Position numbers and translations under genes: made by a program
Shown: one piece after another, positions 2,591 through 62,550 of the stretch
Position numbering within the stretch: position 1 is the first letter of the stretch
Layout of the letters: each line of letters begins with the position of its first letter
Source of the DNA: Undaria pinnatifida
Lineage: Eukaryota; Sar; Phaeophyceae; Laminariales; Alariaceae
Length of the DNA stretch: 64,000 nucleotides
Assembly: GCA_012845835.1 (NCBI GenBank)
Contig: JABAKD010000010.1
Location: forward strand, 12,862,473-12,926,472
Direction of reading: 5' to 3'
The notes under the pieces: generated by a model
Databases searched by the model: none
Seen by the model: only the letters and a program-made list of their open reading frames with translations
What the model was told of the DNA's origin: nothing

Positions 2591-2662
2591 TATTGCAAAG
2601 ATGAGTATCGACCCTGAATTCGTCGAACTCACAGCCGACGTGTTTAGAATCATCTCATAAAA
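2591..2662 (+). repeat. Terminal module, type B
   Basis: The copy has TTGCAAAGATGAGTATCGAC and GTCGAACTCACAGC followed by an AT-rich end. The upstream 70 bp (CACCCTGACAACATCC, then GCAAACACGAGCGGC) match the sequence ahead of the type B copy at 19926. Confidence 0.85.
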
Positions 2663-3285
2663 TATGAAGAGCATACATATCAGTCTCACCCCTTAATCAC
2701 GGTGAGGAACGCGAGACCTTTGGCGCGGCCCAGAAGCTCCTGCGGAATAGATGCGTCCTGAATCATCCCCCTGAAGAAAAAAAAAAAAACAGGAGGCGCC
2801 GATGGGGGAAAAAAAAACGGTTATCGGAAAAGGTGGGAATGTTGATATCGATGCAAGGAAGCCTGTGAGTTCGGGGGTGACACGATATGTAGGGGATACG
2901 GGTGATTGGATACGGGACGAAGGTGGCTGGAGGGGAACACAAGTGACTGCTGTGATACACCTATTATTAAGAGTATATGCCACATTCTATGCTGTGTGAT
3001 ATGCTATACAAGGCTCCCTTGTGGAGGGGGTTGACTGGATATCCCGGGGGCGTCGCAAGTCGAAAACGGGGAACACAGGCGTTCCAATGATAATACACGC
3101 ATGAGCTGCTGCTTTTCAGGAATGCTTTAAGCTATGCCATGCTTGCTTGCTTACCCCCAAAGAATAGCCACTGCGTAACTGCTCCTCGCTTTGACGGCGG
3201 TTTTGGGATATGGGTGTAGCTTTTGGTTTTGGGTTAGGTTTTCGCTTAGGCATCACATTTGTGCTTTGGCTTTCTCAATGTAGCT
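2663..3285. other. No recognisable gene
   Basis: Unique-looking sequence with two short A-runs (2777-2789, 2809-2818). I see no supported feature. Confidence 0.5.
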
Positions 3286-3289
3286 TTTG

Positions 3290-4720
3290 AGTTCGCTCTC
3301 TCGCCTTCTCTCTCTCTTGCGTTTTCGTTTCGCGTGCTCATTCTCATTCTCATTCTCATCTCACTTTCATTCTCATTCTCATCGTCGTTCTCATTATCAT
3401 CATCAATATCATTCCCATTTTCCTTGTCGTTCTCAATATTATTCCCATCCTACACCCCCCTCTCTCTCCCGTTCGCATTCAGCAACGCTCCCGCACGCCC
3501 CCTCCTTCCATCCGCTCCCTTCCCGCTTCCTTCCATCCGCTTCGAACTCCTTGTTCTCATTCTCTCGTCTATTGATTATTGTTCATCCTTCTTCCCATTA
3601 TCGTTCGCATTATCGTCTTCATTCTCACTGCCGTCGTGTCGTTCTTAGATCGTTGTCATTAGCACGCTGATTCTCATTCTCAATCGCGTTCTCTCTCTTT
3701 CGCGCTTCACACCGCTCCCGCACACCCACCGCTTCCGTACGCCCCTCCGCCTACCCCGCCGCTCGTCCAACTTTCCTTCCCGGCGCTGCCTCACTCACTC
3801 CTCATTCCCATTATATCCATCAAGTTTGTCCTCCTTGTCATTCTCGCCATCGTCCACATTTCATTTCGGTTATCATTCCCCTACTACGTCCATCACCGCG
3901 CCCGCCCATCTTGCCTCCAGACTTGCCCCATTCACTCCTCGCGAGCGTCTTCATGCTGAAAAATTCGATATCGTCTTTATTCTCAGCATCAAATTTTACA
4001 TACCAGGTATGATATAATTCTCACTAACTTTCTCTATCTTATGCTCATTATCGGTATCCTTATCATGCTCATTCCCTAGGTTCATCCTTCCCTCCCGGCC
4101 CTGCCTCGGCCACTCGTTGTTGACATTCTCACTCTGAATATCAATATCATTACCATTATCATTCTAAATACACATAAAATGTCGTTCTTATTCTATAATT
4201 CAATACCATTCTCCTCATAAACATCAGTCTAGTTATAGTTCTCACTTTCACTCTCACGATCGTTCTTATTCTATCAATCAATATCATTTCCATTATCATT
4301 AGAAACGTTAGGCTAATTACAATCTTCATCTTCACTATCACCATCGTTCGTATTCTAAATATCCATATCATTCTCATTCTCATAATAACCATCACTAAAA
4401 ATAAATATCATTTTCAATATCACTATCGTTCTTATGCTAACTATCAACATCATTATAAATATAAACATCAAATTCGAATTACTATTGTCACTCTCACTAT
4501 CGTTCTTATTCTAATTATCATTATCATTATCATTATCATTATCATTATAAATATCAGTCAAGTTATAATTCTCATTTCCACTATCACTATCGTTCTTATG
4601 CTAACTATCAGTTTCATTCTCATTATCATCATACATATCAGTCTTATCATAATTATCATTATCACTACTTGTATCAGTCTCAGCCTCACTACCATTCTCA
4701 TGCTCCAGGTTTACTCACTC
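3290..4720 (+). repeat. TTCTCAT/ATCATT imperfect microsatellite field
   Basis: Words such as TTCTCATTCTCAT, ATTATCATTATC and CTATCGTTCTTATTC recur for about 1.4 kb with many interruptions. The forward strand is strongly pyrimidine-rich. Several open frames arise only because the repeat lacks stops in some frames. They read as Ser/Phe/Leu or Ile/Met low-complexity peptides and are not genes. Confidence 0.8.
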
Positions 4721-5219
4721 CTTCGTGAAGTTGTGTATGGTGTAGGCGGCCTTCCGCACCTCCGCCCCCAGCGTGAACACAATGGGTCGATTGAGGTAGG
4801 ACGCCATGCCCCCCTGCTCCACTCCGTTGTCCTTCACCGCATTGCTCACGCTCTCTGCGAATAAATACATGGCGTTTCCGTTTGTGTTACTTGTACAGAT
4901 ATCGTCATCGTTAGCGTAAGCGTTAGTGATAGCGTCATTGTCAGCGTTGGCGTCAGGGAGCGTTGGCGCTACCGTGTGATACAGTGGGTACCCCGATTTA
5001 AGAGCGCCCAGGACAAGAGCATTCAGGACTTGAGAACGGTCAAATCGCCATGTGCCGCCTGTACTAAGAGCTATATATTTCCCATTGTAAGTACCAGCAA
5101 TGCGTAGTTAAGAGCGCTTGTTTCGGCTTGTCACAGGGCGCTCTTAAATCGGAATACCCACTGTGGTGGCGTCGTTGCTGTTACCGTTGGCGCTAGTGAT
5201 AGCGTCAATATTAGTGTTA

Positions 5220-5298
5220 ACATGGTAGCGTTAGTGTTAGCGCTGGTGTTAGCGCTAGTGTTAGCGCTAGTGTTAGCGCTAGTGTTAGCGCTAGTGTT
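5220..5298 (+). repeat. 12-bp minisatellite GTGTTAGCGCTA
   Basis: Six or so units are near perfect here. Each contains the palindrome TAGCGCTA. Confidence 0.88.
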
Positions 5299-5309
5299 AG
5301 GTGTCATCC

Positions 5310-5440
5310 CGCGGCAGGGGGTATGACTTTTTGGGCCAAATGCCTCTGACCGGTAGAGCTCCTCGCGTGTGGACCTATCGGTTAGTATGACAACAATACG
5401 ACCATGTTCGTTTCAGGACTATTAACAGCGCACAGAAAAA
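5310..5440 (+). repeat. Interspersed repeat, copy 1 (partner near 8045-8150)
   Basis: Shares TTTTTGGGCCAAA-like, GAGCTCCTC and ACTATCGGTTAG-type blocks in the same order and orientation as 8045-8150. No coding content is recognised. Confidence 0.65.
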
Positions 5441-5844
5441 CGTTGGACCGGGTTGCCCGGGCGAATGTCTTCGGAATGATGTTTCGGGTGAGGTATTGAG
5501 CTGGCTCTTCACTGTTGGGAGCTCAGAAAATTCTTAGAATCTGATGCATCCCTGGCGTGGGATGCCTCTGAAGTGTTAGCGCTGGTGAGAGTGATGGCGT
5601 TATTGTCAGCGTCGGTGATGGCGTTAGCGGTGATGAGTGTGTCAAGGTTAGGACGCCATGCCCTCGCTGCTCCACGCCGTCGTCCTTCACCGCGTTGACC
5701 ACGGTCTCCGAGGATTAGTACATATTGTTACCGGCCGTGATATATATGTCGTTAAGGTTGGAATTAGTGCTAGCGTTATTGCTAGTGTTAGTGCAAGCAT
5801 TAACATTTAGCGTCGGCACTAGCGTTACTGATGTTCTTTTTAAT

Positions 5845-10202: not shown

Positions 10203-10279
10203 CAGCTTGCAAAGATGAGTATTGACCCGAAATTCGTCGAACTCACGGCTGACGTCCCTGAAATATTTTTATAAAATAA
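10203..10279 (+). repeat. Terminal module, type B
   Basis: AGCTTGCAAAGATGAGTATT, TTCGTCGAACTCACGGCTG and the AT-rich end TTTTTATAAAATAAA are all present. Confidence 0.9.
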
Positions 10280-10973: not shown

Positions 10974-11048
10974 CAGCTTGCAAAGATGACTATCGACCCT
11001 AATTTTCTCGAACTTACAGCTGACGTTGTTAGAATACTTTTATAAAAT
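10974..11048 (+). repeat. Terminal module, type B
   Basis: AGCTTGCAAAGATGACTATC, CTCGAACTTACAGCTGACG and CTTTTATAAAATT are seen. This is the second type B copy in 0.8 kb with the same orientation. Confidence 0.88.
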
Positions 11049-11584: not shown

Positions 11585-11785
11585 GAGCGGTTTTTGGAAG
11601 GATGCAGTTCACCCTTCATGCGACTCACCGAACACCTCACGGCGCTTCGCGCTTAGTGCGAGCAATGTCTGCCTGGTTGGTGAAAACTCGACGTTCTCCG
11701 TCCCGGCATAGTAGGGATGCGAGGGTCTATGGTCATCCGACTACGGCCATGCACAACCTGAGTACACCCCCCCCCTCCCCCCTGT
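11585..11785 (+). repeat. LINE 3' end repeat (family X), copy 3
   Basis: Runs from the ATGCGACTCACCGAACACC block through CCGTCCCGGCATAGTAGGG to GACTACGGCCATGCACAACC, then GAGTAC and a C-run. It lies downstream of the FYVE gene's third exon, in the following intron or 3' flank. Confidence 0.78.
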
Positions 11786-11798
11786 TCCACAAGCTCAC

Positions 11799-11946
11799 CG
11801 GCAAGCATCTCCTGGAGCGGAGCCACGCGGGCGTTGCACGGCTGACATAGCCTCTGCGGGTCCCTCGTGCCGAACGATCGCGGCAGCAGCGCTCGGAAGC
11901 GGCTACACGCGTAGCAGTACAGTCGCCCGCACGCCCGGCAATGATG
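11799..11946 (-). CDS. FYVE gene, exon carrying HHCRACG and the remaining Cys pairs
   Basis: The acceptor GTGCGGGCAG lies at 11947-11948. The exon begins in phase with CATCAT (His-His) and encodes HHCRACGRLYCYACSRFRAL, then PRSFGTRDPQRLCQPC. The end is set at GCCG|GTGAGC; reading through would add ELVEQ and Gly before repeat sequence. Confidence 0.78.
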
Positions 11947-14419
11947 CTGCCCGCACAGCCAAGAAAAACGACGGCGTGAACAAGGAAAATCGGGACACAC
12001 GGTACAGCAGTCGGATGCGGAGGTTTGATGACAAACTCCACTTTTACTATTTCTACTATTTCTTGTATCCATCCGCGGGAATGTGTGAAAACAAAAAACA
12101 AGAGTCGTGTATACTTGTACATACTAGGGTCCACAAAACATTTTCCAGCACCAAAAGACAGTGATCGGTGCTCGAAGAACCAGTAAAAAACATACACGCG
12201 AAAAGTGAAAAAAAAACAAGCACTGCGCAGACTACACACACAGATATACACCGATGTCTTTTCGCTGGTCGTTAGCCTTTCGTTTGTTTTTGGGCTGTAT
12301 AGACTTTCACACATCCCCTGCTTTTAGGCCTTCGGTTTTGTTTTAGGGCTACAGACTACAGACGACAGACAACAGACGACACACTACAGACGACAGACGA
12401 CAGACAACAAACGACACACTACAGACGACAGACTACAGACTACAGACTACAGACTACAGACGACAGACTACAGACACAGGCGCTTCAACTGCTGACGACG
12501 GGCCCTTGCTTTGTTCCAGCTAGCTGTCAGAACAACACCGGAATTCACGTCATACACACCAGGCACCTGGTACACTTTTGGGGCACAAAGCACAGACAAG
12601 CACGGCAGGGGCGGGTACCCCCATTTTCTCACTAATTGGATTGGGCCACTCGCACCAGTGACTATGTACCTCGCTGACGAAAACACTTTCGGCCATCCGC
12701 TTGGCGAGGGGTGGCTAACCATTCCATTGCATGTCTATATCCCAAACTCAAAGCTGCGCGATAGCTTAAGGCCGAAAGGGAGCGGAGGACCACACCCGCG
12801 AGTGACCCCGAGCTACTGCAAAAACTGGCCTCATAAGCCCCCCCCACCGTAGTTACGGTCAGCAGCAGCGGCGGCGTTGCGGTGGCGGCTGCGTGCGCGC
12901 GTGCGCCTGTTGCTGTTTCTTTCTCCTGCTGCACTTCCCTCAAAACTTGGGGATGTGCGTCGCAATTCTGTTTGGCATAGGTATGTTTTGATGACCTACG
13001 TGCACAGGTACCTGTGGTCTGTGCATACGCACGCTTTTATTCACTCTGGCGCGCTCTCAAGAACAGACCAAGACGTTGAAATATTTTTCGTCGCACACGT
13101 ACACCACGATAGACACCACTGCTGCTGCCTCCACCGTCACACCACCGCCGCCGCCCCTGCTGCTGCTGCTGCATGGCTTCCTATTCTGCGTGTTCTTCCA
13201 CACAAAACACTGCTGTTTTGGTCAGCAAATTCATTGGGTGTTTTCGACCGAGCATCTTTCATGTTTTTTCTCCCCCTAGAATTTCGTTACTTGTGACTCT
13301 GGGACTACTCCAGTTTAACTCCTTGCCGCACCCCGAAACAAAAAGCAGCCCCTCCCCCTCCTCCCCCCTCTAAAAAAAAAACAGCCCCTATCCTCTCACC
13401 CGCCGCCTTGCCCAGTCGAAGTCCTTTCCGCACCCCACGCAAGACGTGTTCTGCTCGTCCGGCACCCATCGAGGGGGCATGAGGCCAACACCCCACCCCG
13501 CCACGGACACGCCCCCTGGTGTGCCCCGTGCAACTCCTCCTGCCTCTATCCCGGCAGCCGAAATAGCTGAGTTCGGGGTTGGTCTCGTGGACCGCAGGCT
13601 CCATTTTTTTCTGCGATTAATGCACCCCATCCGACACGCAACAGGTATGGGAAGGGGGGTCAGGAGGGAGAGGGGGGGCGGGGGGGCGGTAAGCGCTTTC
13701 GACCACCTTAATATGAATATAAAAAAAAGGCCGAGTCAACATTTTTTCCCCAGATCCGCCTACCATTTAGAGGTGATGTTCATGCAACACCAACAGCACG
13801 AGCGAAACACTTGATAACACCAACGTCAACAACAACGTCAACAACACTTGATAACACCAACAACGTCAACAACAACGTCAACAACAACACCAGAAACAAC
13901 AAGCACACAAAACCGCCAACAAACCACCAAACAACCGAACAACGACAAAATACATAACAAACAAAACAACGAAAGTATCGGCTTTACACACGACGACTAG
14001 CACCAACGCCCACCTGGCCGACTCCGAAACCTCTGGCAAGTCGTCTAACTCCTTCGACACCCCGGCCCCCGCCCCCCCACCACCTCCACCACTATCGGGC
14101 GGTATCGCCACCGAAAAAGGGTCTGCAGGTAACCCTCCCCCTTCACCCCCTGCTCGGATCCCACTATTTTGTCTAGTACCGCCACCGCCGCCACTACCAC
14201 CGCCGTCACCACCGCGGCCGCCGTCACCACCGTGGCCGCCGTTACCACCGCCGCCGCCGTCACGACCGCCGCCGCCGCCACCACCACCACCACCACCACT
14301 GCCGCTACCGCCACTGGCAGCAGGTCCTGACCAGGCGTGGTCGTCGGTTTCGCTGGGCCATCTCCCTTCGATCACTTGTCGGCTCGGCACTCGGTGCTGC
14401 TGCCCCCCGTCTTCCTCCC
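11799..14419 (-). CDS. FYVE-type zinc-finger protein gene, three exons visible (partial)
   Basis: Exons 14419-14014, 13610-13400 and 11946-11799 are joined by two GT/AG introns (403 and 1,453 bp) whose phases match. The second exon supplies the WVPD signature, CVGC and DFDWARRR. The third begins HHCRACGRLYCYACS and ends RLCQPCNARVAPLQEML. Joined, they give the complete FYVE layout: WxxD, four Cys pairs as zinc ligands, the basic R(R)HHCR patch and an RLC in place of RVC. FYVE domains bind phosphatidylinositol 3-phosphate and place proteins on early endosomes; the rest of the protein here is low-complexity, so its task is unknown. The true 5' end lies beyond 14420, because the first visible exon follows a polypyrimidine tract and acceptor. 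A GTGAGC donor at 11798 suggests more exons downstream that I cannot place. Confidence 0.8.
12348..12478 (+). repeat. 7-bp minisatellite ACAGACK
   Basis: About 18 units of ACAGACG, ACAGACT or ACAGACA with CACACT interruptions lie within the large FYVE intron. Confidence 0.9.
12511..12850 (+). pseudogene. Possible Ty1/copia protease-region fragment
   Basis: A single open frame inside the FYVE intron, antisense to the gene. It contains TWYTFGAQSTDKH and VTMYLADENTFGHPLGEGWL followed by TIPLHVY. The spacing recalls copia retropepsins (WYLDSGAS.H ... V.LADG....G.G.L.I.L), but the catalytic D-S/T-G is replaced. No RT or integrase follows. The frame is clean for about 110 codons, so a different protein is possible. 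Naming is tentative. Confidence 0.33.
13400..13610 (-). CDS. FYVE gene, exon carrying WxxD and the first Cys pair
   Basis: The acceptor ATCGCAG at 13612-13611 leaves one base that completes the split codon from the previous exon. The exon then encodes a Ser/Thr/Pro/Gly-rich run and RWVPDEQNTSCVGCGKDFDW followed by ARRR. It ends exactly on a codon boundary before GTGAGAGG, a strong donor. Confidence 0.78.
13800..13895 (+). repeat. AACAACGTCAAC imperfect microsatellite
   Basis: Repeated AACACCAACAACGTCAACAAC units fall in the first visible FYVE intron. Confidence 0.85.
14014..14419 (-). CDS. FYVE gene, first visible exon (Gly-rich)
   Basis: The acceptor TTACCCAG at 14421-14420 is preceded by a long C/T tract. 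The donor is CCAG|GTGGGC at 14013. The frame encodes GEEDGGQQHRVPSRQVIEG, then a poly-Gly stretch with Asp/Arg/His (from CCACCG/CCGCCG repeats at 14175-14310), then KELDDLPEVSESA. The exon ends after two bases of a codon. Gly-rich linkers are common in low-complexity algal and protist proteins. The exon is inferred from splice signals and an open frame. Confidence 0.62.
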
Positions 14420-18090: not shown

Positions 18091-18160
18091 TTATTATAAA
18101 AATTAAAATACACTCCAGCTGTGAGATCGAAGATTTCGTCGAAACTCATCTTTGCAAGCT
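18091..18160 (-). repeat. Terminal module, type A
   Basis: Reverse complement gives AGCTTGCAAAGATGAG, TTTCGACGAAATCTTCGATC and CACAGCTGGAGTG. It forms the outer end of foldback arm 1. Confidence 0.92.
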
Positions 18161-18993
18161 GTGTGTGATACTCCGATCGCGCGCATTACGAGTTGTGTGT
18201 CCTCATTAAGGATATAGGTCGGCGACTCCCCTTACAGCTACAGTGTAGCTATCAGGGTCAACAGGATGATTTTAGTCAGTCTGTGCGCGGAAACTATAAA
18301 ACCCGTTTCTGAGGGGGACAAAATCTGACAGCTGTGAAGGCAAAGGGGGGGCCTGGTTTTGATCAAAAGCGAGCGGGTTTGGAGGGGGGGCGGGGGGGGG
18401 GGGGGGGGAAAGGGGCAATTTGTGCATGTAAGCTATAAATCCTTTCGAGGGGATAAATCTGACGGTTTTGGCACCAGTATATTATTGGGGGCGGGGGGGG
18501 GGGGGGGGGGGCGGGGGGGGCAGCTCGATATGTGCCTGGAAACTATACATTATTTCGAGGGGATAAATGTGACATTTTTGGAAATAATACATCAGTTTAT
18601 CGTGTATATTCTGGGATAAGTCGTACAATCAGTGAGTAAAGAGAGGGTGGAGTGTTCGAGGTGGTGGGGTTGGGATGGGTTGGGGGGGGAGGGTGGGGGG
18701 TGGGGGCGGGGGCGGGGGGCGGGGGGGGGGGGGAAAGGGCTTTAGGTGAGGGGTTTGTTATACGTGTGGTGCTAGGTCTAGGCAAAGGTGCGGGTGATGG
18801 GGAAGAAAGGGGCGTTCGAGGCGGGGGGGGGGGGGGACACAGCGGCATGGATGGCTCTCGAAAGATAATGAGGTGATATCCTGTGCGTGAAGTGTTTATT
18901 AATGTGGCGGATTTCGATATTTGGTGGGGCGTTTGAGTAAGGGAGAGCAAGAGGGGGGGGGGGGGGGGGGGGGAGATTTTTTAGGAGGTTATT
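18091..18993 (-). mobile_element. Foldback arm 1 (element E with G-run modules)
   Basis: From the type A module it runs through GATATAGGTCGGCGACTCCCC, CCCGTTTCTGAGGGGGAC, G-run modules, GTGGTGCTAGGTCTAGG and GGCGGATTTCGATATTTGG to about 18993. The same order is found reversed at 21290 to 20330. No long reading frame is credible. Confidence 0.85.
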
Positions 18994-19364: not shown

Positions 19365-19988
19365 TGCATTATTTCGTAACTTTTCAGGTACTACCTCGTA
19401 CAGCTACTATTAATAGTGTACTCGTAGTACATGAAACCTGGTACCTGCTGCCAGGGACGACGAAATTGCAACACTATAATGTACAGTAGTAATCCCACAA
19501 TTAATACTGGTAGTACAAAATACAAGTAAAAAACGAAGAAGCCAATGTCTAGCCGTATATAACTAAGTGTAAAAGCTATTAATAGCAGGTGATTAATAGG
19601 TGGATTTACTACCTCTGCTACTGATGTGTTGATGTGGTACTTGGTGATAAGTTATTAATACTTTTGGGTTTTGTGAGTACTCTAACAATGTCACTTCGAT
19701 TATATTACGTGTGCTACCCACAACAATAACAGCAGTGGTAGTCGGGACGATTTAAAGAAAAAATAACGTTCAAAAATTAAGCTCACCACACTTCCACATA
19801 CTTTCATGCGCATCGTGTGCCAATTTAACTCCTCCATTGTATTCGCAAAACTATATCATTACGATTGGATGTTAATGTCCACCCTGGCATCATCCGCAGA
19901 GCAAACGAGCGGCAGGCGCATCAAGCAGCTTGCAAAGATGAGTATCGACCCTGAATGTATCGAACTCACAGCTGACGTGTTTATATAT
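19365..19988 (+). repeat. Direct duplication unit X (partner 21650-22259)
   Basis: TACATGAAACCTGGTACCTG, CCAATGTCTAGCCGTATATA, CTAACAATGTCACTTCGATT and AACGAGCGGCAGGCGCATCA recur about 2.28 kb downstream in order, ending in a type B terminal module in both. It includes the K-like block TCACCACACTTCCACATAC. Confidence 0.92.
19926..19988 (+). repeat. Terminal module, type B
   Basis: AGCTTGCAAAGATGAGTATC, TGTATCGAACTCACAGCTG and a TTTATATATATT end are present. Confidence 0.9.
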
Positions 19989-19999
19989 ATTATTGTTCA

Positions 20000-20280
20000 T
20001 AAAAAACCCCAACCCTTCCCCCCCCCCCCCCGTCCCCCCCGTCCCCCGATACCCCCCCCTTTCGCCTAGTTTGTCCAAACGCCCCACTCACAATCGAAAT
20101 CGGCCAGAGTAATAAACACCTGTACGCAGTTGATATCACGTCATTATCTTTCTGACCATCCATGACGTAGTTTTCAATTATTTTCCCCCCACCCCCCCCC
20201 CCTCCAACGCCCCCTCTTTTCCAACCACCCGCACGATCGCCTAGACCTTGCACCACGCGTATAACAAGCCCCTACATATC
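20000..20280 (-). repeat. Extra G-run module between the foldback arms
   Basis: On the - strand it holds TTACTCTGGCCGATTTCGATTG, GGGGCGTTTGGAC and two G-runs, a divergent copy of part of the arm module. Confidence 0.7.
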
Positions 20281-20320
20281 TATGATCTCACAGCCGAAGT
20301 GTATTTGAATATTTTTGTGA
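20281..20320 (+). repeat. Terminal module, 3' half only
   Basis: ATGATCTCACAGCCGAAGTG then TATTTGAATATTTTT. The 5' half is missing, and the copy abuts the end of foldback arm 2. Confidence 0.7.
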
Positions 20321-20929: not shown

Positions 20930-21224
20930 TTCCAAACCCGCTCGCTTTTGATCAAAACCAGGCCCCCACGTCCTTCAAAACTCGCCCCCCCCCCCTCACC
21001 GGTTATTCGACTTACAAGAGTCACTTGATAAAAGAATACATCTCCCTCCACAGCTGTCAGATTTTGTCCCCCTCAGAAACGGGTTTTATAGTTTCCGCGC
21101 ACAGACTGACTAAAATCACCCTGTTGACCCTGATAGCTACACTGTAGTTGTAAGGGGAGTCGCCGACCTATATCCTTAATGAGGACACACAACTCGTTAT
21201 ACGCGCGATCGGAGTATCACACAC

Positions 21225-21290
21225 AGCTTGCAAAGATGAGTTTCGACGAAATCTTCGATCTCACAGCTGGAGTGTATTTTCATTTTTTAT
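21225..21290 (+). repeat. Terminal module, type A
   Basis: AGCTTGCAAAGATGAGTTTC, ATCTTCGATCTCACAGCTGG and GTGTATTTTCATTTTTTATA. The upstream GCGCGATCGGAGTATCACAC is typical of type A. Confidence 0.93.
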
Positions 21291-21555: not shown

Positions 21556-21630
21556 TATTTTATAAAAATATTTCAAGGACGTCAACCGTGAGTTCGACGA
21601 ATTTCGGGTCAATACTCATCTTTGCAAGCT
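21556..21630 (-). repeat. Terminal module, type B
   Basis: Reverse complement: AGCTTGCAAAGATGAGTATT, TTCGTCGAACTCACGG and TATTTTTATAAAATATAC. It is very close to the copy at 10203. Confidence 0.9.
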
Positions 21631-21649
21631 GCGTTGTTGGTACTTCCAA

Positions 21650-22259
21650 GTATATTATTTCGTAACTTTTTCCGGTACTATTAATACTATTAATAGTGTA
21701 CTCGTCGTAGTACATGAAACCTGGTACCTGCTGCCAGGGACGACGAAATTGCAACACCATACGAATGTATTGTAATCCCACTACTGGTAGTACAAAATAC
21801 AAGAAGTAAAAAATGAAGAAGCCAATGTCTAGCCGTATATAACAAAGTGTAAAAGCTATTAATGGCAGCTGACTAATAGGTGGATTTACCACTCGTACCT
21901 CTGCGGTGTTGATGTGGTACTTGGTGATGAGTTATTAATACGTTTGGGTTTTATTAGTACTCTAACAATGTCACTTCGATTATATTACGTGTGCTACCCA
22001 CAACAATAACAGCAGTGGTATTCGGGACGATTTAAAGAAAAATGAAGTTTAATTAAGCTCACCACACTTCCACATATTTTCATGCGCATCGTGTGCCAAT
22101 TTAACTCCTCCATTGTATTCGCAAAACTATATCATTACGATTGGCTGTTAATGTCCACCCTGACATCATCCGTAGGGCAAACGAGCGGCAGGCGCATCAA
22201 GCAGCTTGCAAAGATGAGTATCGACCCTGAATGTATCGATCTCAGCTGACGTGTTTATA
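21650..22259 (+). repeat. Direct duplication unit X, copy 2
   Basis: Matches 19365-19988 with small indels. It ends inside a type B module that runs straight into a type A module at about 22260. Confidence 0.92.
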
Positions 22260-22318
22260 TAGATGAGTTTCGACAAAATATTCGATCTCACAGCTGGAGT
22301 GTATTGTAATTTTTATAA
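22202..22318 (+). repeat. Fused terminal modules, type B then type A
   Basis: A type B module (22202-22259) ends at TTTATATAG and continues, without the usual type A 5' flank, at ATGAGTTTCGACAAAATATT (22263) and CTCACAGCTGGAGTG. The type A copy lacks its AGCTTGCAAAG part, so this is a recombinant or nested junction. Confidence 0.85.
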
Positions 22319-22933: not shown

Positions 22934-23190
22934 AAAAAATGAAAAAAATACACTTTAGCCGTGAGATCGACCAAAAGGGATTTGTTTATCAAAACTCAGC
23001 TTTGCAGGCTGCGCGCGATGCTTCGATCGCGCGCGCATGTTACGGTGTGTGTTTACCCTCGTGAAGGATACAGGTCGGTGACTCCCCTGTTAATGCCAGG
23101 ATCAACAGGACTAAGACGTTCAGCCTTGTTCTGCGCACAGAAACTGTATAACAGGTATTGAGGGGGACAAAACCAGACAAGTGTGGAATC
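22934..23190 (-). repeat. Terminal module, type C, with element E body
   Basis: Reverse complement of 22934-23010 gives AAAGCTGAGTTTTGATAAAC, GGTCGATCTCACGGC and AAAGTGTATTTTTTTCA. The continuation to 23190 has GTCGGTGACTCCCC, ATCAACAGG and GTATTGAGGGGGACAAAA as in type A elements, so types A and C share a body. Confidence 0.85.
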
Positions 23191-25710: not shown

Positions 25711-25714
25711 AAAA

Positions 25715-25766
25715 AAACATTAAAAAATACGTCAGCTGTGAGTTCGACAAATTTAGGGTCGAAACA
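25715..25766 (-). repeat. Terminal module, type B (5' truncated)
   Basis: Reverse complement: TCGACCCTAAATTTGTCGAAC, CTCACAGCTGACG and TATTTTTTAATG. The AGCTTGCAAAG part is missing. Confidence 0.8.
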
Positions 25767-26574: not shown

Positions 26575-26650
26575 TGCTTGCAAAGATGAATTTTGTTCAA
26601 ATTATTTTGGTCGATCTCACAGCTCAAGAAGTGTATTTTTGTTCATTTTT
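26575..26650 (+). repeat. Terminal module, type C
   Basis: GCTTGCAAAGATGAATTTTG, GGTCGATCTCACAGCTC and AAGTGTATTTTTG. Confidence 0.82.
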
Positions 26651-27301: not shown

Positions 27302-27377
27302 CAGCTTGCAAATATGAGAATAGATAATTCAATGGGTCAAACTCACAGATGACGCATTTGAAATAGTTTTACAAAAC
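27302..27377 (+). repeat. Terminal module, type B (diverged)
   Basis: AGCTTGCAAATATGAGAATAG, GTCAAACTCACAGATGACG and GTTTTACAAAACAG. Confidence 0.78.
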
Positions 27378-28974: not shown

Positions 28975-29245
28975 TATTATAAAAATTAAAATAAACTCCA
29001 GCTGTGAGATCGAATATTTTGTCGAACCTCATCTTTGCAAGCTGTGTGTGATACTTCGATCGCGCGTGTTACGGGTTGTGTGTCCTCATTAAGGATATAG
29101 GTCGGCGACTCCCCTTGCAACTACAGTGTACAGCTATCAGGGTCAACAGGGTGATGTTAGGCAGTCTGTGCGCGGAAACTATAAAACCCGTTTCTGAGGG
29201 GGACAAAATCTGACAGCTGTGGAAGGAAATGCATCAGTTCATCAA
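28975..29245 (-). mobile_element. Element E end with type A terminal module
   Basis: The type A module (28975-29043, reversed) is followed by GATATAGGTCGGCGACTCCCC, CAGCTATCAGGGTCAACAGG and CCCGTTTCTGAGGGGGACAA as in foldback arm 1. Confidence 0.92.
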
Positions 29246-29254
29246 GTGAACCCG

Positions 29255-29735
29255 TAAGTCGAATAACCGGCGAGGGGAGGGCGGAGATTTCAAGGACGTG
29301 GGGGGCTGATTGTGATCAAAAGGGGGGCGGGAGGGGGGCAAGGGGGGGAGGGACAGGTGGGGCAGCTCAATTTGTGCGTGGAAACTATATCTCCTTGTGG
29401 TGGAGGGGGGGGGGGGAATGTGGCGGGGGGGGGGGGGGGAAGGGGGGGCTTTAGGTCGCATAGATGTAGGGGTTTGCTATACGCGTGGTGCTAGGTCTAG
29501 GCGATGGTGCGGGTGGTGGGGAAGGAGGGGGCGTTGGGGGCGGGGGGAGGGTGAGAATTGCAGCAGCGGCATGGACGGCTCAAAAAGATAATGAGGCGAC
29601 ATCCAGGGCGTGGGAGTGGTTATTACTCTGGCGGATTTCGATATTAGGTGGGGCGTTTGAGCTAGAGAGAGCGAGGAAAAAAAAAGGGGGGGGGGGGGGG
29701 GGGGGGGAGCGGAAAGGGTTTTCAAGAGGTTTAGG
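29255..29735 (+). mobile_element. G-run modules of element E
   Basis: GGGGTTTGCTATACGCGTGG, TGCTAGGTCTAGGCGATGG, GCGGCATGGACGGCTC, GATAATGAGGCGACATCC, GGCGGATTTCGATATTAGG and several G-runs. Order matches foldback arm 1. Confidence 0.88.
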
Positions 29736-29741
29736 TCACAT

Positions 29742-29802
29742 ATAATATAAACATACACTCCAGCTACGAGATCAAGGATTTGGTCGAAACTTATCTTGGC
29801 AA
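29742..29802 (-). repeat. Terminal module, type A (diverged)
   Basis: Reverse complement: TTGCCAAGATAAGTTTCGAC, TCCTTGATCTCGTAGCTGG, AGTGTATGTTTATATTATA. Confidence 0.82.
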
Positions 29803-29849
29803 CATTGTGTGTGATACTCCGATCGCGCATTGTGTGTGATACTCCGATC

Positions 29850-30300
29850 GCGCGTGATGATAATATATGTAGGGGCTTGCTATACGCGCGGCGCTGGGTG
29901 TAGGCGATCGTGCGGGGTGTGGGGAAGGAGGGGGCGTTGGAGGGAGGGGAGGGGGGATGAATGAAAGCTATGTCATGGATGGCTAGAAAGATAATGACGT
30001 GATATGTTTATTACTCTGGTCGACTTCGATTGTAAGTGGGGCGTTTGAACGAACTGGGCGGGGAACAAAACGGGGGGGGGGGGGGAAGGAGAGCGGAGAT
30101 GAGTTGGATCTACGGCATGTATGGCTAGAAGGATAATGAGATGATATCAGCTGGCTGGTAGTGTTTACTGCTCTGGTAGATTTTGATTCTAGGTGGGACG
30201 TTTGAACAAGAGGGATCGGGGGGGAGGGGCATTTCAATATGTGCGCGGAAACTATAAACCCTTAAAGGGGACGAATCTGACGGTTGTAGCAAGAAGACAC
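29850..30300 (+). repeat. Two further G-run modules of element E
   Basis: GTAGGGGCTTGCTATACGCG and two repeats of CTAGAA(A/G)GATAATGA, TGATAT, TTACT(C/G)CTCTGGT and GGGNCGTTTGAACNA, near 29965-30070 and 30115-30230, then AACTATAAACCCTTAAAGGG. Confidence 0.8.
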
Positions 30301-31240
30301 CCCTTTATATCACCCTGATTAGATTATAAGGTGCCCCGTGCTGCTGGCGTAGCTATTAGTATTAATGGTAGCAAGGAGGAGTAGTAGTAGCAGCAGTGGA
30401 ATTAGCAGAATGGTCTTAATAGTGGAACTAGTATTAAATAATATAGTATTAGTGGAAGAACAGCTTATGAGATGTGACATCGGAAGGTTTACCCTCCGTC
30501 ACGTTGCTACTGTGTAAACATGCCCAAAAGCCAGTACCCTGGCAGCCGACAAGGAGAACGCACACGGAGCGTGCAGGATGTGCAAGGTGGCAACAACACA
30601 CAATAGCAGCAACAACAACAACAACATATCGACCCGATGCACTGCTTGCTGTTGCCCAACAACGACTGCCTGGTACCGTTAACACCGATGTACTCGTGTA
30701 GACCACTCGTAAATGCTTTTAAGAGCTCTGCTCCCTTACGACAAGTACCCCCCTCTCCCCCCTCTCCTCCTCCTCCTTCTCCTCCTCCTCCTGCTGATGC
30801 TGTTGCTGTGCGTTGCAGCAGAGACCACAAACGGCGCCCATCTACAAAAATCTGCCCGGTTATCAATTTCTCCTTGCTCCCGTGTCTCAACTTCCACTCT
30901 TATCCTTTGTCCTGTAAGTTCGAGCACTCCACCATGTGGCCTTTTGGTGCGTGTCAAAATCATGCCAGCTACTGCTGTCACGGGGCGGGGTCCAGTGGTT
31001 TAGCGCAATAGAGAACGAGGCAGGTTGGTGCATATCACGAGCTTGCTTGCAGAATTGCCCTCGACGGCAGCAACGTGACCTTGGCTCGACGGTGAGTCTG
31101 TATTTCCGCATTTCCTTGTACATGAATATATATATGATATGGCACTGCGTCGTAAGTGCCACAAATGTCACTCTTGCAAGAAATCTCTGGCATGACGACA
31201 ACCATCGCTGCTGCAATTTCAAACTGCATCTGCAAAAAAA
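30301..31240. other. Low-support coding-like frames only
   Basis: Trinucleotide-rich AGT/AGC (30345-30415) and CTCCTC (30755-30795) tracts flank short frames. On the - strand, 30981-30840 reads RPHGGVLELTGQRIRVEVET, which looks protein-like, but no domain, splice pair or extension supports it. Confidence 0.3.
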
Positions 31241-35142: not shown

Positions 35143-35222
35143 TTTAGAAGAAATGAAAAATACACTCAAGACGTGGGGTCGACCAAAAATGATTTCTTGA
35201 TCAAACTCAGCTTTGCAAGCTG
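35143..35222 (-). repeat. Terminal module, type C
   Basis: Reverse complement: AGCTTGCAAAGCTGAGTTTG, TTTTTGGTCGACCCCACG and TTGAGTGTATTTTTCATTTC. Confidence 0.85.
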
Positions 35223-41819: not shown

Positions 41820-41960
41820 AAGGGGAGTCGCCGACCTATATCCTTAATGAGGACACACAACCCGCAGTACGCGCGATCGGAGTACCACACACAGCTTGCA
41901 AAGATGAGTTTCGACGAAATATTCGATCTTGCAGCTGGAGTGTATTTTTATGTTTATAAT
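41820..41960 (+). mobile_element. Element E end with type A terminal module
   Basis: GGGGAGTCGCCGACCTATAT, CCTTAATGAGGACACACAAC, CGCGATCGGAGTACCACAC, then the type A module at 41893-41960 ending TATTTTTATGTTTATAATAA. Confidence 0.93.
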
Positions 41961-44339: not shown

Positions 44340-44580
44340 CATCATCCCTCTATTAATAGCGTCGTTGCTTGCTTAATTATTATTATTAGGCTTGCTTTTT
44401 TCACTCGATACGGGGGCAACGATGACGGTATTGGCACCACTGCTATTAATGGTGCCGTGGTCAAAAATGGCGGGCAGGTGATACAGGCCTGTGCTGTGAC
44501 CACGGACTTGATTATGCGAGTTAATGTGAGAACAACAACAACAGCAACAACAACAACAACAACAACAACAACAAACAATA
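44340..44580 (+). mobile_element. (AAC)n-tailed family, 5'-truncated copy
   Basis: The supported part begins near 44485: GTGCTGTGACCACGGACTTG, ATTATGCGAGTTAATGTGAG, then about 12 AAC units to 44576. Confidence 0.82.
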
Positions 44581-47420: not shown

Positions 47421-47519
47421 CTTACAGTAGAATGCCTGGGTCCTCACTGAGTAGCTGCGCTGCAACCTGTCAGATAACCCGGACAGGGCGATCACTGATA
47501 CTGTATTTGTATTGTGGTT

Positions 47520-48034: not shown

Positions 48035-48235
48035 TGACTCCCGATTTCACTTTTATATGTTTCTGGTGGAGGCATGAATTGCGTTAGCTGTGATATATGC
48101 GTGTACCACCTTGGGTTGTTTGTGTTTTTTTCCCTGGAGTATTCCTCAGCTCCAGAGTGACTGGAGCCTGTCCTGTGACCACGGACTTGATTATGCGAGT
48201 TAATGTGAGAACAACCACATCAACAACTTCTTTCA
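48035..48235 (+). mobile_element. (AAC)n-tailed SINE-like family, copy 3 (near full length)
   Basis: GACTCCCGATTTCACTTTTA, TTCTGGTGGAGGCATGAATT, GTATTCCTCAGCTCCAGAG, GACTGGAGCCTGTCCTGTG, ACCACGGACTTGATTATGCG and AGTTAATGTGAGAACAACC. Confidence 0.88.
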
Positions 48236-48484: not shown

Positions 48485-48578
48485 TATATAGATCGGAGTA
48501 TCACACACAGCTTGCAAAGATGAGTTTCGACGAAATCTTCGATCTCACAGCTGGAGTGTATTTTCATTTTTTATAATA
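48485..48578 (+). repeat. Terminal module, type A
   Basis: GATCGGAGTATCACACACAG precedes the module at 48509-48578. It is identical in its core to 21225. Confidence 0.93.
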
Positions 48579-48611: not shown

Positions 48612-48764
48612 AGTTTTAAGGGGAGTCGCCGACCTATCCATGTCCTTAATGAGGACAAACCCAGTAATGCGCGCGATCGGAGTATCACACACAGCTTGCG
48701 AAGATGAGCTTCGACGAAATCTTCGATCTCTCACACACAGCTGGAGTGTATTATCATTTTTTTA
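48612..48764 (+). mobile_element. Element E end with type A module, second in tandem
   Basis: TTTTAAGGGGAGTCGCCGAC, TCCTTAATGAGGACAAACCC and the module at 48693-48764, which has an 8-bp CTCACACA insertion between TCGAT and CAGCTGG. Confidence 0.92.
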
Positions 48765-49050: not shown

Positions 49051-49320
49051 ATTAAAATATAAATACACTCCAGCTGTGAGATCGAAGATTTCGTCGAAAC
49101 TCATCTTGGCAAGCTGTGTGTGATACTCCGATCGCGCGTATTACTGGGTTTGTGTCCTCATTCAGGACATAGGTCGGCGACTCCCCTTGGAACTACAGTG
49201 TAGCTTGTATCAGGGTCAACAGGGTCAATCTGTGCGCCGAAACTAAAAACCCCGTTTTTGAGGGGGACAAAATCTGACAGCTGTGGAAGGAAATGCGTCA
49301 GTTTATCAAGTAGATCCTGT
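49051..49320 (-). mobile_element. Element E end with type A module
   Basis: Module at 49051-49115 reversed, then CATAGGTCGGCGACTCCCC, TATCAGGGTCAACAGGG and CCCCGTTTTTGAGGGGGACA. Confidence 0.92.
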
Positions 49321-53230: not shown

Positions 53231-53374
53231 CATGATATGATCTGTGGCAACCCGTACATTGCCTCGAGCAGATGGTGCGCTCAGCAGAACTTTGACGACG
53301 TTAGTCTGCCAGCGCACCCGCGCTCTACTTAATTATTTGTTTATTTATTTACGAGTATTTAATTCGAACACATG

Positions 53375-53660
53375 TACTTTCCAGCTTCTGGACAAGACAT
53401 GGTCACAGGTGTCGTTCCTTCTCCCCGCCGGTTCTTGCCTTCAATTTTTATCGCGCATAGGGTCCAGCAATCTCACTGCTCGTCGATTTTCATCGAGTGT
53501 TGCTAACCCACGCTCGCGCTTTCCGCAAGTCAATTTGTGCGCAAGAAAAAGTCCCCACGAATTTATACGAATATCATGCACTCGGGGGGATTCGAACTCA
53601 CGAAACTGACCTATACCAGGCTCGAGGATAACCTGATACGTCACTGCTGTGGATACCTAG
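53375..53660 (-). mobile_element. tRNA-headed SINE, copy 4
   Basis: On the - strand: GACGTATCAGGTTATCCTCG, GTGAGTTCGAATCCCCCC (B box), GGGACTTTTTCTTGCGCAC, GCAGTGAGATTGCTGGACCC, CATGTCTTGTCCAGAAGCTG. Confidence 0.88.
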
Positions 53661-56440: not shown

Positions 56441-56446
56441 AAATGC

Positions 56447-56493
56447 TTATATAAGGACGTCAGCTGTGAGTTCGACGGATTTAGGGTCGATTG
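56447..56493 (-). repeat. Terminal module, type B (5' truncated)
   Basis: Reverse complement: ATCGACCCTAAATCCGTCGA, ACTCACAGCTGACG, TCCTTATATAAGC. Confidence 0.8.
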
Positions 56494-57117: not shown

Positions 57118-57570
57118 ATATAAGGAGTCGCCGACCTATATCACCCGGTCGCCCCGGTGACGTATCAGGTTATCCTCGAGCCTGGTATAGGTCAGTTTCG
57201 TGAGTTCGAATCCCCCCGAGTGCATGCTCGTATACGTTCGTGGGAACTTTTTCTGCGCACAAATTGACCTGCTGAAAGCGCAAGAACGCGAGTTAGCAAC
57301 ATTCGATGAAAAGTCGACGAGCAGTGGGATTGCTGAACCCTTCGTATGCGCGACAAAAATTGAAGGCAGGAATCGGCGGGGAGAAAGGACGACACCTGTG
57401 ACCACGGCGTGTCCAGAAGCTGGAAAGCAGAAGTGTGGAAAAAAAAAAAAATCCTTCATGAAGAAACATAACCCGCAGTACGCGCGATTGGATCATCACA
57501 ACAGCTTGCAGGGATGAGTTTCGACAAAATCTTCGATCTCACAGCTGGAATGTATTTTATTTTTATTATA
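57118..57570 (+). mobile_element. Element E end interrupted by a tRNA-headed SINE
   Basis: The left piece AAGGAGTCGCCGACCTATATC (57121-57140) and right piece CCTTCATGAAGAAACATAAC, CCGCAGTACGCGCGATTGG, then the type A module at 57502-57570, together match the E end at 41820. The SINE lies between them. Confidence 0.87.
57140..57453 (+). mobile_element. tRNA-headed SINE, copy 5 (near full length)
   Basis: CGCCCCGGTGACGTATCAGG (A box), GTGAGTTCGAATCCCCCC (B box), GCACAAATTGACCTGCTG, GTGGGATTGCTGAACCC, CCTGTGACCACGGCGTGTCC, AGAAGCTGGAAAGCAGAAG and a 13-A tail. Confidence 0.92.
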
Positions 57571-58245: not shown

Positions 58246-58335
58246 TACTCCGTAGTGACTGGAGCCTGTCCTGTACCACGGCGGACTTGACTATGCGAGT
58301 TGACGTGAGAGCAACAACAACAACAACAACAACAA
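58246..58335 (+). mobile_element. (AAC)n-tailed family, 3' part
   Basis: AGTGACTGGAGCCTGTCCTG, ACTTGACTATGCGAGTTGAC, GTGAGAGCAACAACAACAAC. It begins exactly where repeat Q copy 2 ends, head to head. Confidence 0.85.
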
Positions 58336-58392: not shown

Positions 58393-58462
58393 GATGAAAA
58401 AATACACATGAGCTGTGGGATCGACCAAAAAGGTTTGTTTTTTTTCAAATCTCAGCTTTACA
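58393..58462 (-). repeat. Terminal module, type C
   Basis: Reverse complement: AAAGCTGAGATTTGAAAAAA, TTTTTGGTCGATCCCACAGC, TCATGTGTATTTTTTCATC. Confidence 0.82.
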
Positions 58463-58524
58463 CCTGCATGTTTTTTCATTTTTTTATATATATGAAATAC
58501 TACGTTTTTTTAGTGCATACTTCT

Positions 58525-58800
58525 ACTTTCCAGCTTCTGGACAAGCCGTGGTCACAGGTGTCGTCCCTTCTTCCCCCCGGTTCTTGCCTTCAATTTGGGT
58601 TCAGCAATCCCGCTGCTCGTAGATTTTTCGTCGAGTGTTGCTAACTCACGCTCTCGCGTTTTCCGCACGTCAATTATTGCACAAGAAAAAGTCCCCCCGA
58701 ATTCATACGAGTATGCACTCGGCGGGATTCGAACTCACGAAACTGGCCTATACCAGGCTCGAGGATAACCTCATACGCCGCCGGGGCGACCGGTATCATA
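58525..58800 (-). mobile_element. tRNA-headed SINE, copy 6
   Basis: On the - strand: CGCCCCGGCGGCGTATGAGG, GTGAGTTCGAATCCCGCC (B box), GGGACTTTTTCTTGTGC, GCAGCGGGATTGCTGAACCC, CCACGGCTTGTCCAGAAGCT. Confidence 0.9.
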
Positions 58801-59904: not shown

Positions 59905-60140
59905 GTTAAGCTGATGCTCGTATACTTTCGTGGGGACTTTTTCTTGTCCACATATTGACTTGGGGAAAACGCTAGAGCGTGAGTTAGCAACACTCGATGG
60001 AAAATCGACGACCAGTGGGATTGCTGAACCCTATGGGCGATAAAAATCGAAGGCAAGAACCGGGGGGAAGAAGGGACGACACCTGTGACCACGGCTTGTC
60101 CAGAAGCTGGAAAGTAGAAGTGTGCAAAAAAAAAGATTAT
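59905..60140 (+). mobile_element. tRNA-headed SINE, copy 7 (5' truncated)
   Basis: ATGCTCGTATACTTTCGTGG, GTGGGATTGCTGAACCC, CACCTGTGACCACGGCTTGT, CCAGAAGCTGGAAAGTAGAA and an A-tail. The tRNA head is missing. Confidence 0.9.
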
Positions 60141-60975: not shown

Positions 60976-61550
60976 CAACCCGCCTCGTCTCGCCTGGCGT
61001 GTATCACGGCATATATGACGGCATGGATGGATACCTGGTATACTGCTGTAGTACTGCTGTAACCTAGAATATTGCCTGTGCTGTTGTATTTTACAGTACA
61101 GCAGTAGTTGTGCCATGACCTAGCATAGCCGTACTGCTGTTGTAGCCGATATTTTTGCCTTTGCGATAACATCATGTTCGTAGATAACATCATGCTCATA
61201 GATGTGCCGCCACCTACATACGGTGGTCGTTGCCTCCCGGTCCCTCTAGGTTTTATACAGTACGCGACAACACTTGAGAATTTGGCAGGTGATGATTTCG
61301 CGTTTTCCTGTTTTAGTTGAAAACGATAAGATGATGATCGGTTTTCGTACCGACAACAGCCAGTGTAGGGCACGCCCTGCCTGATGAGTAAGGATCACGG
61401 ATTGGCCAGATTTTCATTTGGTGTCGCGTACGTGTACGGCTTGCTGTATGCTAGGTGCGAGCAAGTTTTGTGTGTGTGTTTTTTTGTTGTCGTTCGAGCT
61501 ACTATCTTTGTTGCGGTTAGCTGCTTTTGCTTGCTGTACGGGTGTGGTGT
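60976..61550. other. No recognisable gene
   Basis: Words TACTGCTGTA and its reverse recur (61042-61140). No supported feature. Confidence 0.4.
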
Positions 61551-61552
61551 CG

Positions 61553-61742
61553 CCTTGTGTTGTGTTGTGTTGTGATGTGATGTGATGTGTTGTGTTGTGT
61601 TGTGTTGTGTTGTGTTGTGTTGTGTTGTGTTGTGTTGTGTTGTGTTGTTTTGTGTTGTGTTGTGTGGTGTGGTGTTGTGTTGTGTTGTGTTGTGTTGTGT
61701 TGTGTTGTGTTGTGATGTGATGTGATGTGTTGTGTTTTGTTG
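61553..61742 (+). repeat. (TGTTG)n pentanucleotide array
   Basis: About 38 units, with TGATG variants symmetrically near both ends (about 61573-61587 and 61711-61725). Confidence 0.95.
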
Positions 61743-61799
61743 TACCGTCTTTTCAACCGCCACGCGGGCGGAGACGGACAGACAAAAATGTGGTGTGGG

Positions 61800-61892
61800 C
61801 GGATGAATGGATGGATGGGTCGATGGGTGGATGGGCGGATCGATGGATGAATCGATGGATGCATGCGTGGATCGGTGGATGGATGGGGAATA
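61800..61892 (+). repeat. (GGAT)n-like tetranucleotide array
   Basis: GATGGATGGGTCGATGG-type units, imperfect. Confidence 0.88.
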
Positions 61893-61911
61893 GCCACGTA
61901 CGAGATTTTTT

Positions 61912-62100
61912 TTTATTATTGTTGTCATCTCTTCGACTATCTTCGCGCTTTTCTTTCTCCTTTTCCGTCCCTAGACGTTGCTCAGATCGAGGGTCACATG
62001 GCAGGCTCTTCTCCCCCCTTCCCACTACGGTACCTGCCTTCATTTTTGTCACGAGAAGACTGCAGCTCTTTGCTCCCTCGTCCACTCGCGTCGAATTAAT
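61912..62100 (+). repeat. Interspersed pyrimidine-rich family P1, copy 4
   Basis: CATCTCTTCGACTATCTTCG, CTTTCTCCTTTTCCGTCCC, GCAGGCTCTTCTCCCCCC, GGTACCTGCCTTC and TCACGAGAAGACTGCAGC. Confidence 0.85.
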
Positions 62101-62487
62101 TGTGCATTCAGTTCTGAATTGAGCAAACTCGAAACTACGACGATCGATCGCACTTGTAGAAAGAAACAGTGCTGTTAAATGATGTGTTACGGCGGTGTTG
62201 TTTGTGTGTACCTGGTGAATTGACATATTTTATGTACTAACTGTGCAGCCGTATTGGGCACTGCTCTAGTGCAAAGTGAACCTTATTTATTAGTCTTATT
62301 TCTGTTGACAGCAGTACCGTGACTTCGAAACTGGAACTTCGGTGCAAGTTCCTATTACAAGGAGGTTGAAAAACGCAGAAGGTGTTGATTTTTTCACGTT
62401 TCGATTTTTTGTATGATATTATTAATAGTGGAATACTATACAGTTTTGCCTGTGGTAGTTCACCAGTCCTTCCTATAAGTTAGAACA

Positions 62488-62550
62488 AATAAAAAATACG
62501 CTTCAGGTTGTGCGATCGGAAGTTTTTTCATGGAAACTCATGTTTGCTCG
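62488..62550 (-). repeat. Terminal module, type C (diverged)
   Basis: Reverse complement: GCAAACATGAGTTTCCATG, CCGATCGCACAACCTG, AAGCGTATTTTTTATTTG. Confidence 0.68.

What the first reader, a model, noticed from the sequence alone, without database searches (positions are those of the whole stretch)
2591..62550. One short terminal module shared by several different repeat bodies, about 25 copies
Seen: a segment of about 60-70 bp recurs on both strands, starting GCTTGCAAAGATGAG and closing with TCGATCTCACAGCTG..GTGTATTTT plus an AT-rich end such as TTTTTATAAAAT. Three subtypes (A, B, C) keep both edges but differ in the middle. Bodies attached to it differ: the element E body ending GCGCGATCGGAGTATCACAC (types A and C), and the K/X body ending GCAAACGAGCGGC (type B). 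Known: SINEs of 'stringent' LINE systems share a 3' tail recognised by the partner LINE RT. Inference: the module is such a shared tail, or a conserved end needed for mobilisation, and several non-autonomous families exploit it.
Basis: partly seen in the sequence, partly recalled or inferred. Interest (0 to 1): 0.75.

Follow-up and report, generated by a model that had tools for sequence, protein, structure and literature searches.

The report
Shared 3' tail of kelp retrotransposons
A short DNA tail found many thousands of times in a kelp-sized genome marks the downstream end of several different mobile elements, and in one copy it also sits at the far end of a Penelope-like retrotransposon that may supply the copying enzyme, as LINEs do for SINEs.

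Summary
In detail: 25 module copies in the window and 14,680 exact two-arm copies in its unnamed 511-Mb genome, reversed control 0. The module is a real 3' end: conservation drops at 70 nt, and direct repeats, the clearest 13-16 bp, start just after it, two beside nearly bare modules. Body X1 is unrelated to the other bodies; E and K/X2 are at most borderline similar. Subtypes A and C are both E. The two abundant RTE-X-like LINEs end in (AC)n or (AAC)n, not the module. The best partner candidate is a Chlamys-like Penelope element. At C19, E lay about 4 kb past its RT, as predicted, and a complete module 5.7 kb past it, 116 of 116 bases equal to the window (the first module guess, missed). Two more copies have E at the same spacing, but 4 of 5 RT hits on C1/C2 lack an exact E start there. 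An old E fragment inside the same elements leaves a passenger origin open. A conserved hairpin is not supported. Shared tail: supported. LINE partner: not.

The parts
21224..21288 (+). module, type A (E body)
   Evidence: 1.8e-20
48508..48572 (+). module, type A, body cut at GATCGGAG
18098..18161 (-). module, type A, end of an E copy of about 0.9 kb (18098-18990), possible TSD ATAAAATAAC
49054..49116 (-). module, type A (E body)
28981..29044 (-). module, type A, end of the long E copy
28978..30312 (-). long E copy (about 1.33 kb) with internal module; ATAATCTAAT at 28968-28977 and 30318-30327 (found by eye)
41892..41955 (+). module, type A, body cut near 41819
48692..48763 (+). module, type A, body cut near 48610
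57502..57566 (+). module, type A, body cut near 57451
22261..22314 (+). module, type A, 5' part missing, abuts B module
29742..29802 (-). internal module inside the long E copy
20275..20316 (+). internal module (3' half) in an E tandem
19926..19993 (+). module, type B (K body 19368-19925)
22202..22259 (+). module, type B (K body 21654-22201)
2593..2652 (+). module, type B (K body)
10203..10271 (+). module, type B (X1)
21564..21631 (-). module, type B (X1), nearly bare insertion, 16-bp TSD AATATACTTGGAAGTA
10974..11041 (+). module, type B (X2)
25714..25765 (-). module, type B, 5' truncated
56446..56491 (-). module, type B, 5' truncated
22938..23011 (-). module, type C (E body)
35149..35222 (-). 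module, type C, body truncated in an AT run
26576..26642 (+). module, type C
58393..58462 (-). module, type C, degenerate
27302..27370 (+). module, divergent
62484..62547 (-). module, divergent; possible 17-bp TSD with 2 mismatches

Best explanation
The module is the 3' terminal tail of retrotransposed copies. E, with the module at its end, is most likely the 3' terminal part of a Chlamys-like Penelope element (GIY-YIG and RT in one ORF, then about 3.8 kb, then E, then module); many E copies are then 5'-truncated copies of it. K/X2 and X1 are non-autonomous elements with the same tail. Proposed working: the PLE protein recognises the tail in the RNA, nicks AT-rich DNA and starts reverse transcription at the tail, so copies end there and lose their 5' ends at varying points. 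Shown: constant 3' boundary, variable 5' ends, target-site duplications, more than one body, the module at the far end of one PLE copy, E at the same spacing in two more. Inferred: that the PLE protein recognises the tail, that it moves K, X1 and X2, and that the PLE itself ends at the module.
For: Column conservation is 0.61-0.80 at 60-69 nt past TTGC and 0.42-0.43 at 70-79 nt in all three groups (A 20 copies, one of them mis-sorted; X1 11; B 35), while upstream it fades gradually. Direct-repeat scan of 89 copies: 11 score 12 or more against 2 of 267 controls; 6 of the 11 are tandem self-matches, leaving 5 of 83 (L055, window 21631-, L045:564-, L062:1973-, L054:1524-; L055 is uncertain, 26 bp with mismatches). 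Filled/empty pair: an X1 with a 12-bp repeat lies inside E's internal tail in L004; L005 and L062 show the site empty. PLE: GIY-YIG E=3.8e-7 in a 1,100-aa open frame. L100: sequence upstream of an E start matches the far 3' region of the PLE at 72-91%. From that I chose a stretch downstream of the C19 PLE: L101 is E in the same orientation; L102, chosen for the module, held E body; L103, re-estimated from L102, holds the full module. Further: C1:11084027 RT with an exact E start 3.73 kb on, chance about 6e-4; C32:24213376 RT with an E segment about 4.0 kb on.
Against: On C1 and C2, where the list covers the relevant places, 4 of 5 listed PLE RT hits have no exact E start at that distance (identities 93, 85, 83 and 63%). 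Of the 40 best places for the C19 E segment, only C19 itself and C32 lie beside a listed PLE RT (the RT list scored 95 of 412 candidates). In 12 of 12 PLE 3' regions an old E fragment lies inside the PLE about 0.9-1 kb after the RT without a terminal module, so E also occurs as a passenger and the distal E could be one too. The PLE's own ends and TSD were not established. Pfam does not hit the RT part, no solved structure matches, no hammerhead was found in the window. L100's exact junction occurs only 5 times. K, X1 and X2 are linked to the PLE by the tail alone.
Confidence: 0.6

Rival explanations
1. The tail belongs to an undetected LINE (for example of the RTE or CRE kind). E is a non-autonomous element of that LINE, and the PLE carries E only as passenger insertions copied along with it.
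For: E is a fossil passenger inside 12 of 12 PLE 3' regions. The RVT_1 search scored only 150 of 3,526 candidates, and the 30 fetched are all from two families, so a rarer LINE could be missed. PMC12477816 (passages) reports RTE, RTE-X and CRE LINEs in the brown alga Ectocarpus.
Against: E and the module lie at the far end of the PLE in C19, and E at the same spacing in C1 and C32. tblastn with the two LINE proteins over the loci held found LINE fragments outside the LINE loci only at window 46463-47434 and in L064, neither ending in a module; other LINE kinds were not searched for in those loci.
Confidence: 0.25
2. The two RTE-X-like LINE families move these elements with relaxed 3' end recognition.
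For: They are abundant with long open frames, and other short repeats in the window share an RTE-X-like tail (D19, by eye).
Against: Their 3' ends are (AC)n or (AAC)n in 7 of 7 copies examined, with no module at the end.
Confidence: 0.06
3. The module spreads as part of a satellite or by segmental duplication rather than by retrotransposition.
For: E occurs in partial tandem arrays, and 19368-19990 / 21654-22264 is a local duplication.
Against: Dispersed copies on many contigs (one search list), direct repeats at the ends, nearly bare insertions and a filled/empty pair.
Confidence: 0.04

Closest known systems
SINEs of stringent LINE systems (recalled: UnaL2/UnaSINE1, L2/CR1 SINEs)
   Same: Different bodies share a short 3' tail; insertions end at it; variable 5' ends; TSDs.
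   Different: The element found with the tail looks like a Penelope-like element, not a LINE; a tail stem-loop is not supported here; no tRNA-like head found.
RTEX-N1_Ec32 of Ectocarpus (PMC12477816, passages seen)
   Same: Brown algal non-autonomous element of about 600 bp, more than 6,000 copies, 3' end shared with autonomous elements.
   Different: Its partner is RTE-X. The RTE-X-like LINEs here end in (AAC)n or (AC)n, not in the module.
Chlamys-group Penelope-like elements in Ectocarpus (PMC12477816, passages)
   Same: PLEs in a brown alga; 3 families, 4,782 copies, 27 intact.
   Different: The passages seen describe no shared tail on other bodies.
Poseidon PLE of Anolis (PMC11167929, abstract and main text read)
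   Same: AT-rich target, tandem or partial-tandem copies, a 'tail' at the ends of genomic copies.
   Different: Its tail lies inside the start of its own ORF and it has a hammerhead; neither was shown here.
'Short, nonautonomous Penelope elements' in Heliconius (PMC6685494, two passages)
   Same: Non-autonomous Penelope elements exist elsewhere.
   Different: The passages seen give no shared-tail analysis across different bodies.

Membership tests
Penelope-like element, Chlamys group (candidate partner) | GIY-YIG endonuclease domain in the retroelement ORF | tested here: met
   L075 ORF, PF01541 E=3.8e-7 over its cut-off; 22 matches genome-wide, some possibly cellular genes
Penelope-like element, Chlamys group (candidate partner) | Reverse transcriptase in the same ORF, downstream of GIY-YIG (permuted order) | tested here: inconclusive
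   One 1,100-aa open frame spans both and the downstream part has RFIDDIL (meaning of the motif recalled), but Pfam and PDB searches give no hit
Penelope-like element, Chlamys group (candidate partner) | Tandem or partial-tandem arrangement (pLTR) | tested here: inconclusive
   E forms partial tandem arrays with internal tails; the PLE ORF itself was not seen in tandem
Penelope-like element, Chlamys group (candidate partner) | Hammerhead ribozyme motif | tested here: inconclusive
   No Rfam match in the window at gathering score; in 21100-21310 at E up to 10 only one unrelated match below its gathering score. The PLE loci were not searched, and whether all Chlamys elements carry one is not known to me
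SINE with LINE partner | 3' tail shared with an autonomous LINE | tested here: not met
   Both LINE families found end in other tails, 7 of 7 copies; a rarer LINE is not excluded
SINE with LINE partner | Pol III promoter or tRNA/5S/7SL head | tested here: inconclusive
   ARAGORN 0 genes, Rfam 0 matches at gathering score; A/B boxes not scanned
SINE with LINE partner | Target-site duplications, constant 3' end, variable 5' end | tested here: met

The most novel reading that the evidence does not exclude
Penelope-class retrotransposons can have stringent tail recognition that unrelated non-autonomous families have captured: a SINE-like guild on a Penelope host in kelp. The tail reads as an ORF start (MSFDEIFDLTAGVYF in A, MSIDPKFVELTADV in B), with subtype lengths differing by multiples of three. 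It may thus be a relic of the internal start site of reverse transcription that Poseidon has inside its ORF start.
Probability: 0.32. Interest if true: 0.75.

Novelty: new variant of a known kind. Interest (0 to 1): 0.6.

Why it matters
If the PLE is the partner, the LINE/SINE logic of a shared 3' tail extends to the third class of retroelements, and a minimal RNA substrate of about 70 nt for a Penelope enzyme can be tested directly. If the genome is Undaria, it would also give identity to part of the 36.1% 'unknown' repeats reported there, where SINEs were put at 0.003% (PMC7058681, passages).

Tried and rejected
Hairpin: CAGCT..AGCTG, TGAG..CTCA and TCGA..TCGA can pair in the A and B consensus, and one pair change in one C copy looked compensatory. 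Single folds are mostly no better than shuffles (11 folded, z -2.03 to +1.33). On 68 copies (65 distinct) there is no covariation beyond shuffles, and RNAalifold gives 0 pairs. Not claimed.

RTE-X-like LINEs as partner: rejected from their tails. A supposed PLE at C13 (L089) was a false lead: no PLE RT match in L099. CGCAGC-type A modules as a route to another body: 8 of 193 fetched, all E by eye. Viral contigs (2 scans) and GTDB contigs (1 scan): exact patterns gave 0. PF14529 was asked repeatedly and never answered. A full-text search for five pieces of the peptide gave 0 papers.

Organism: not named by any tool. Kelp, probably Undaria pinnatifida, is inferred from assembly size (511,146,479 here against 511,280,173 in PMC7058681) and from my recall of brown algal LINE proteins; not proven.

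Full report
Observation. The two edge motifs are strongly over-represented, and an iterated profile finds 25 copies at E<1e-5 on both strands. In the window's own genome (511,146,479 bases in 68 contigs) the 15-mer TCGATCTCACAGCTG has 10,734 forward and 10,987 reverse exact matches. The two-arm pattern has 7,276 + 7,404, a B-type 22-mer 488 + 457, and an X1 31-mer 605 + 578; the reversed controls are 0.

Bodies. In 91 records (290,865 fetched bases plus the window) the profile finds 93 modules, 25 of them in the window. Subtypes A and C sit on one body, E. B sits on K, X2 and X1. With the module removed (K 13, X2 13, X1 10, E 15 copies), the K profile finds 5 of 13 X2 copies at 0.01 or better (best 3.3e-6) and the X2 profile 3 of 13 K copies. 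X1 neither finds nor is found by any other group at 0.01. E against K is not significant (best 0.028). E against X2 gives one hit at 0.0089 besides hits that I take to be one X2 copy mis-sorted into the A set (L072:2883). By eye E, K and X2 resemble each other in the 25 nt before the module. So X1 is clearly a separate body; whether E and K/X2 are distant relatives is open.

The module is an end. In groups A (20, one mis-sorted), X1 (11) and B (35) conservation drops from 0.61-0.80 to 0.42-0.43 at 70 nt after TTGC, while upstream it declines gradually. Of 89 copies scanned for direct repeats placed just after the module, 11 reach score 12 against 2 of 267 mismatched pairings; 6 of the 11 are tandem self-matches (L005, window 22202 and 22261, L065 twice, window 48692), leaving 5 of 83. 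Clear cases: window 21564-21631 (16 bp, nearly bare), L045:564- (15 bp, nearly bare), L062:1973- (13 bp, E with 0.9 kb of body), L054:1524- (15 bp, one mismatch). L055 (26 bp with mismatches) is uncertain. Weaker ones include window 18098-18161 (10 bp) and L042 (9 bp, at an E truncation point). The long E of the window, 28978-30312, has ATAATCTAAT on both sides (by eye). In L004 an X1 with a 12-bp repeat sits inside the internal tail of E; L005 and L062 show that site empty. Nine of eleven repeats that I judged possible by eye begin with A, so part of the AT-rich end is probably target sequence.

E structure. E is built of C-rich units. It occurs as partial tandem arrays in which an internal module is followed directly by GTGACCTAAACC or near variants (window 20316, 29742; L005; L081). 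The sequence TGATATAAAGGGNTGTCTT near its upstream end has 1,441 exact matches.

Partner. The RVT_1 search scored 150 of 3,526 candidates. The 30 fetched fall into two families, 19 and 11 ('RTE-X-like' is my recall of the protein type). Seven of their 3' flanks were fetched; they end in (AC)n (3) or (AAC)n (4). Modules elsewhere in 3 of the 7 stretches are unrelated to the LINE ends. GIY-YIG gives 22 matches from 32 candidates. One lies in a 1,100-aa frame with a PLE-like RT; Pfam confirms GIY-YIG (3.8e-7) but not the RT, and the PDB gives no match. The RT part finds 111 matches (95 of 412 candidates scored).

Of 14 loci fetched downstream of GIY-YIG hits, 12 share the PLE 3' region and 2 (L086, L089) do not. 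All 12 carry an old E fragment, without a terminal module; in L081 it includes an internal module. This alone would make E a passenger. But upstream of the E in L005 (L100) lies sequence 72-91% like the far 3' region of the PLE (L090). From this I expected E about 4 kb beyond the RT of the C19 copy. L101 (C19:15945150-15945600) is E in the same orientation. The stretch then chosen for the module (L102) held E body instead; re-estimated from it, L103 holds a complete type A module at C19:15946801-15946864, about 5.7 kb past the RT, with 116 of 116 bases equal to window 18092-18207.

Two further copies agree: C1:11084027-11085193 with an exact E start at 11088927, 3.73 kb on (chance about 6e-4), and C32:24213376 with an E segment at 24218666, about 4.0 kb past the projected RT end. 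Against: 4 of 5 listed RT hits on C1/C2 have no exact E start at that spacing (one 93% identical, the others 63-85%), and of the 40 best places for the C19 E segment only C19 itself and C32 lie beside a listed PLE RT (compared by eye). L100's exact upstream junction occurs only 5 times.

Reading. The C19 copy and the agreeing spacing make the PLE the best candidate, but a passenger origin of the distal E is not excluded. In Anolis Poseidon (PMC11167929, abstract and main text) reverse transcription starts inside the RNA, 111-118 bp into the ORF; AT-rich DNA is cut; copies stand in tandem or partial tandem and carry a tail. The elements here share the AT-rich target, tandem form and tail. The module reads as an ORF start in A and B, and the distance from that ATG (CTG in C) to CTCAC is 24, 27 and 33 nt in the A, B and C consensus (by eye). 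In 53 of 71 single copies with an exact CTCAC it is a multiple of three in 40, not in 13; these copies are not independent. The PLE ORF seen does not begin with this peptide and no module lies in the 1.17 kb before it, so this is only a hint.

Structure test. Negative. No hammerhead match in the window.

Literature. RTEX-N1 in Ectocarpus is the nearest published tail-sharing case that I saw (PMC12477816, passages). A search for non-autonomous Penelope terms found one paper, which mentions short non-autonomous Penelope elements in butterflies. A search for Undaria, SINE and Penelope gave 272 papers; the 6 shown include none that holds both Undaria and Penelope. Most subscription papers are not in the library (PMC8557442 was not held), so priority is not established.

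Noticed in passing
window 46463-47434 (-): Degenerate fragment of an RTE-X-like LINE protein, 54% identical to L008 over 329 aa.
   Followed up: partly
window 42606-42667, 44487-44548, 48166-48227, 58266-58327 (+); 28224-28298 (-): A second shared tail: short repeats with an end like the GTGACCACGGACTTGATTATGCGAG...(AAC)n end of the L012-type LINE (compared by eye).
   Followed up: partly
window 27900-28210, 53368-53644, 58505-58800 (+); 57145-57451, 59914-60134 (-): Another dispersed family of about 300 bp (D10/D14) whose reverse strand ends CCTGTGACCACGG...A-rich.
   Followed up: no
window 23614-25350: 11-bp tandem array open in three forward frames (VRYAFVTRSLR repeats).
   Followed up: no
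window 11653-12123 (-): ORF with a FYVE zinc finger, E=2.9e-9.
   Followed up: no
window 19368-19990 and 21654-22264: 90% local duplication of a K element and flank; in one copy the B module abuts a partial A module at 22259/22261.
   Followed up: partly
L103:165-181: An X1-like body start (GGACCCCTCCC) lies about 50 bp after the module of the C19 PLE (by eye).
   Followed up: no
L076-L088 (not L086): An old E fragment ending at GAGTCGCCGA lies inside the 3' region of every PLE copy examined (12 of 12).
   Followed up: partly
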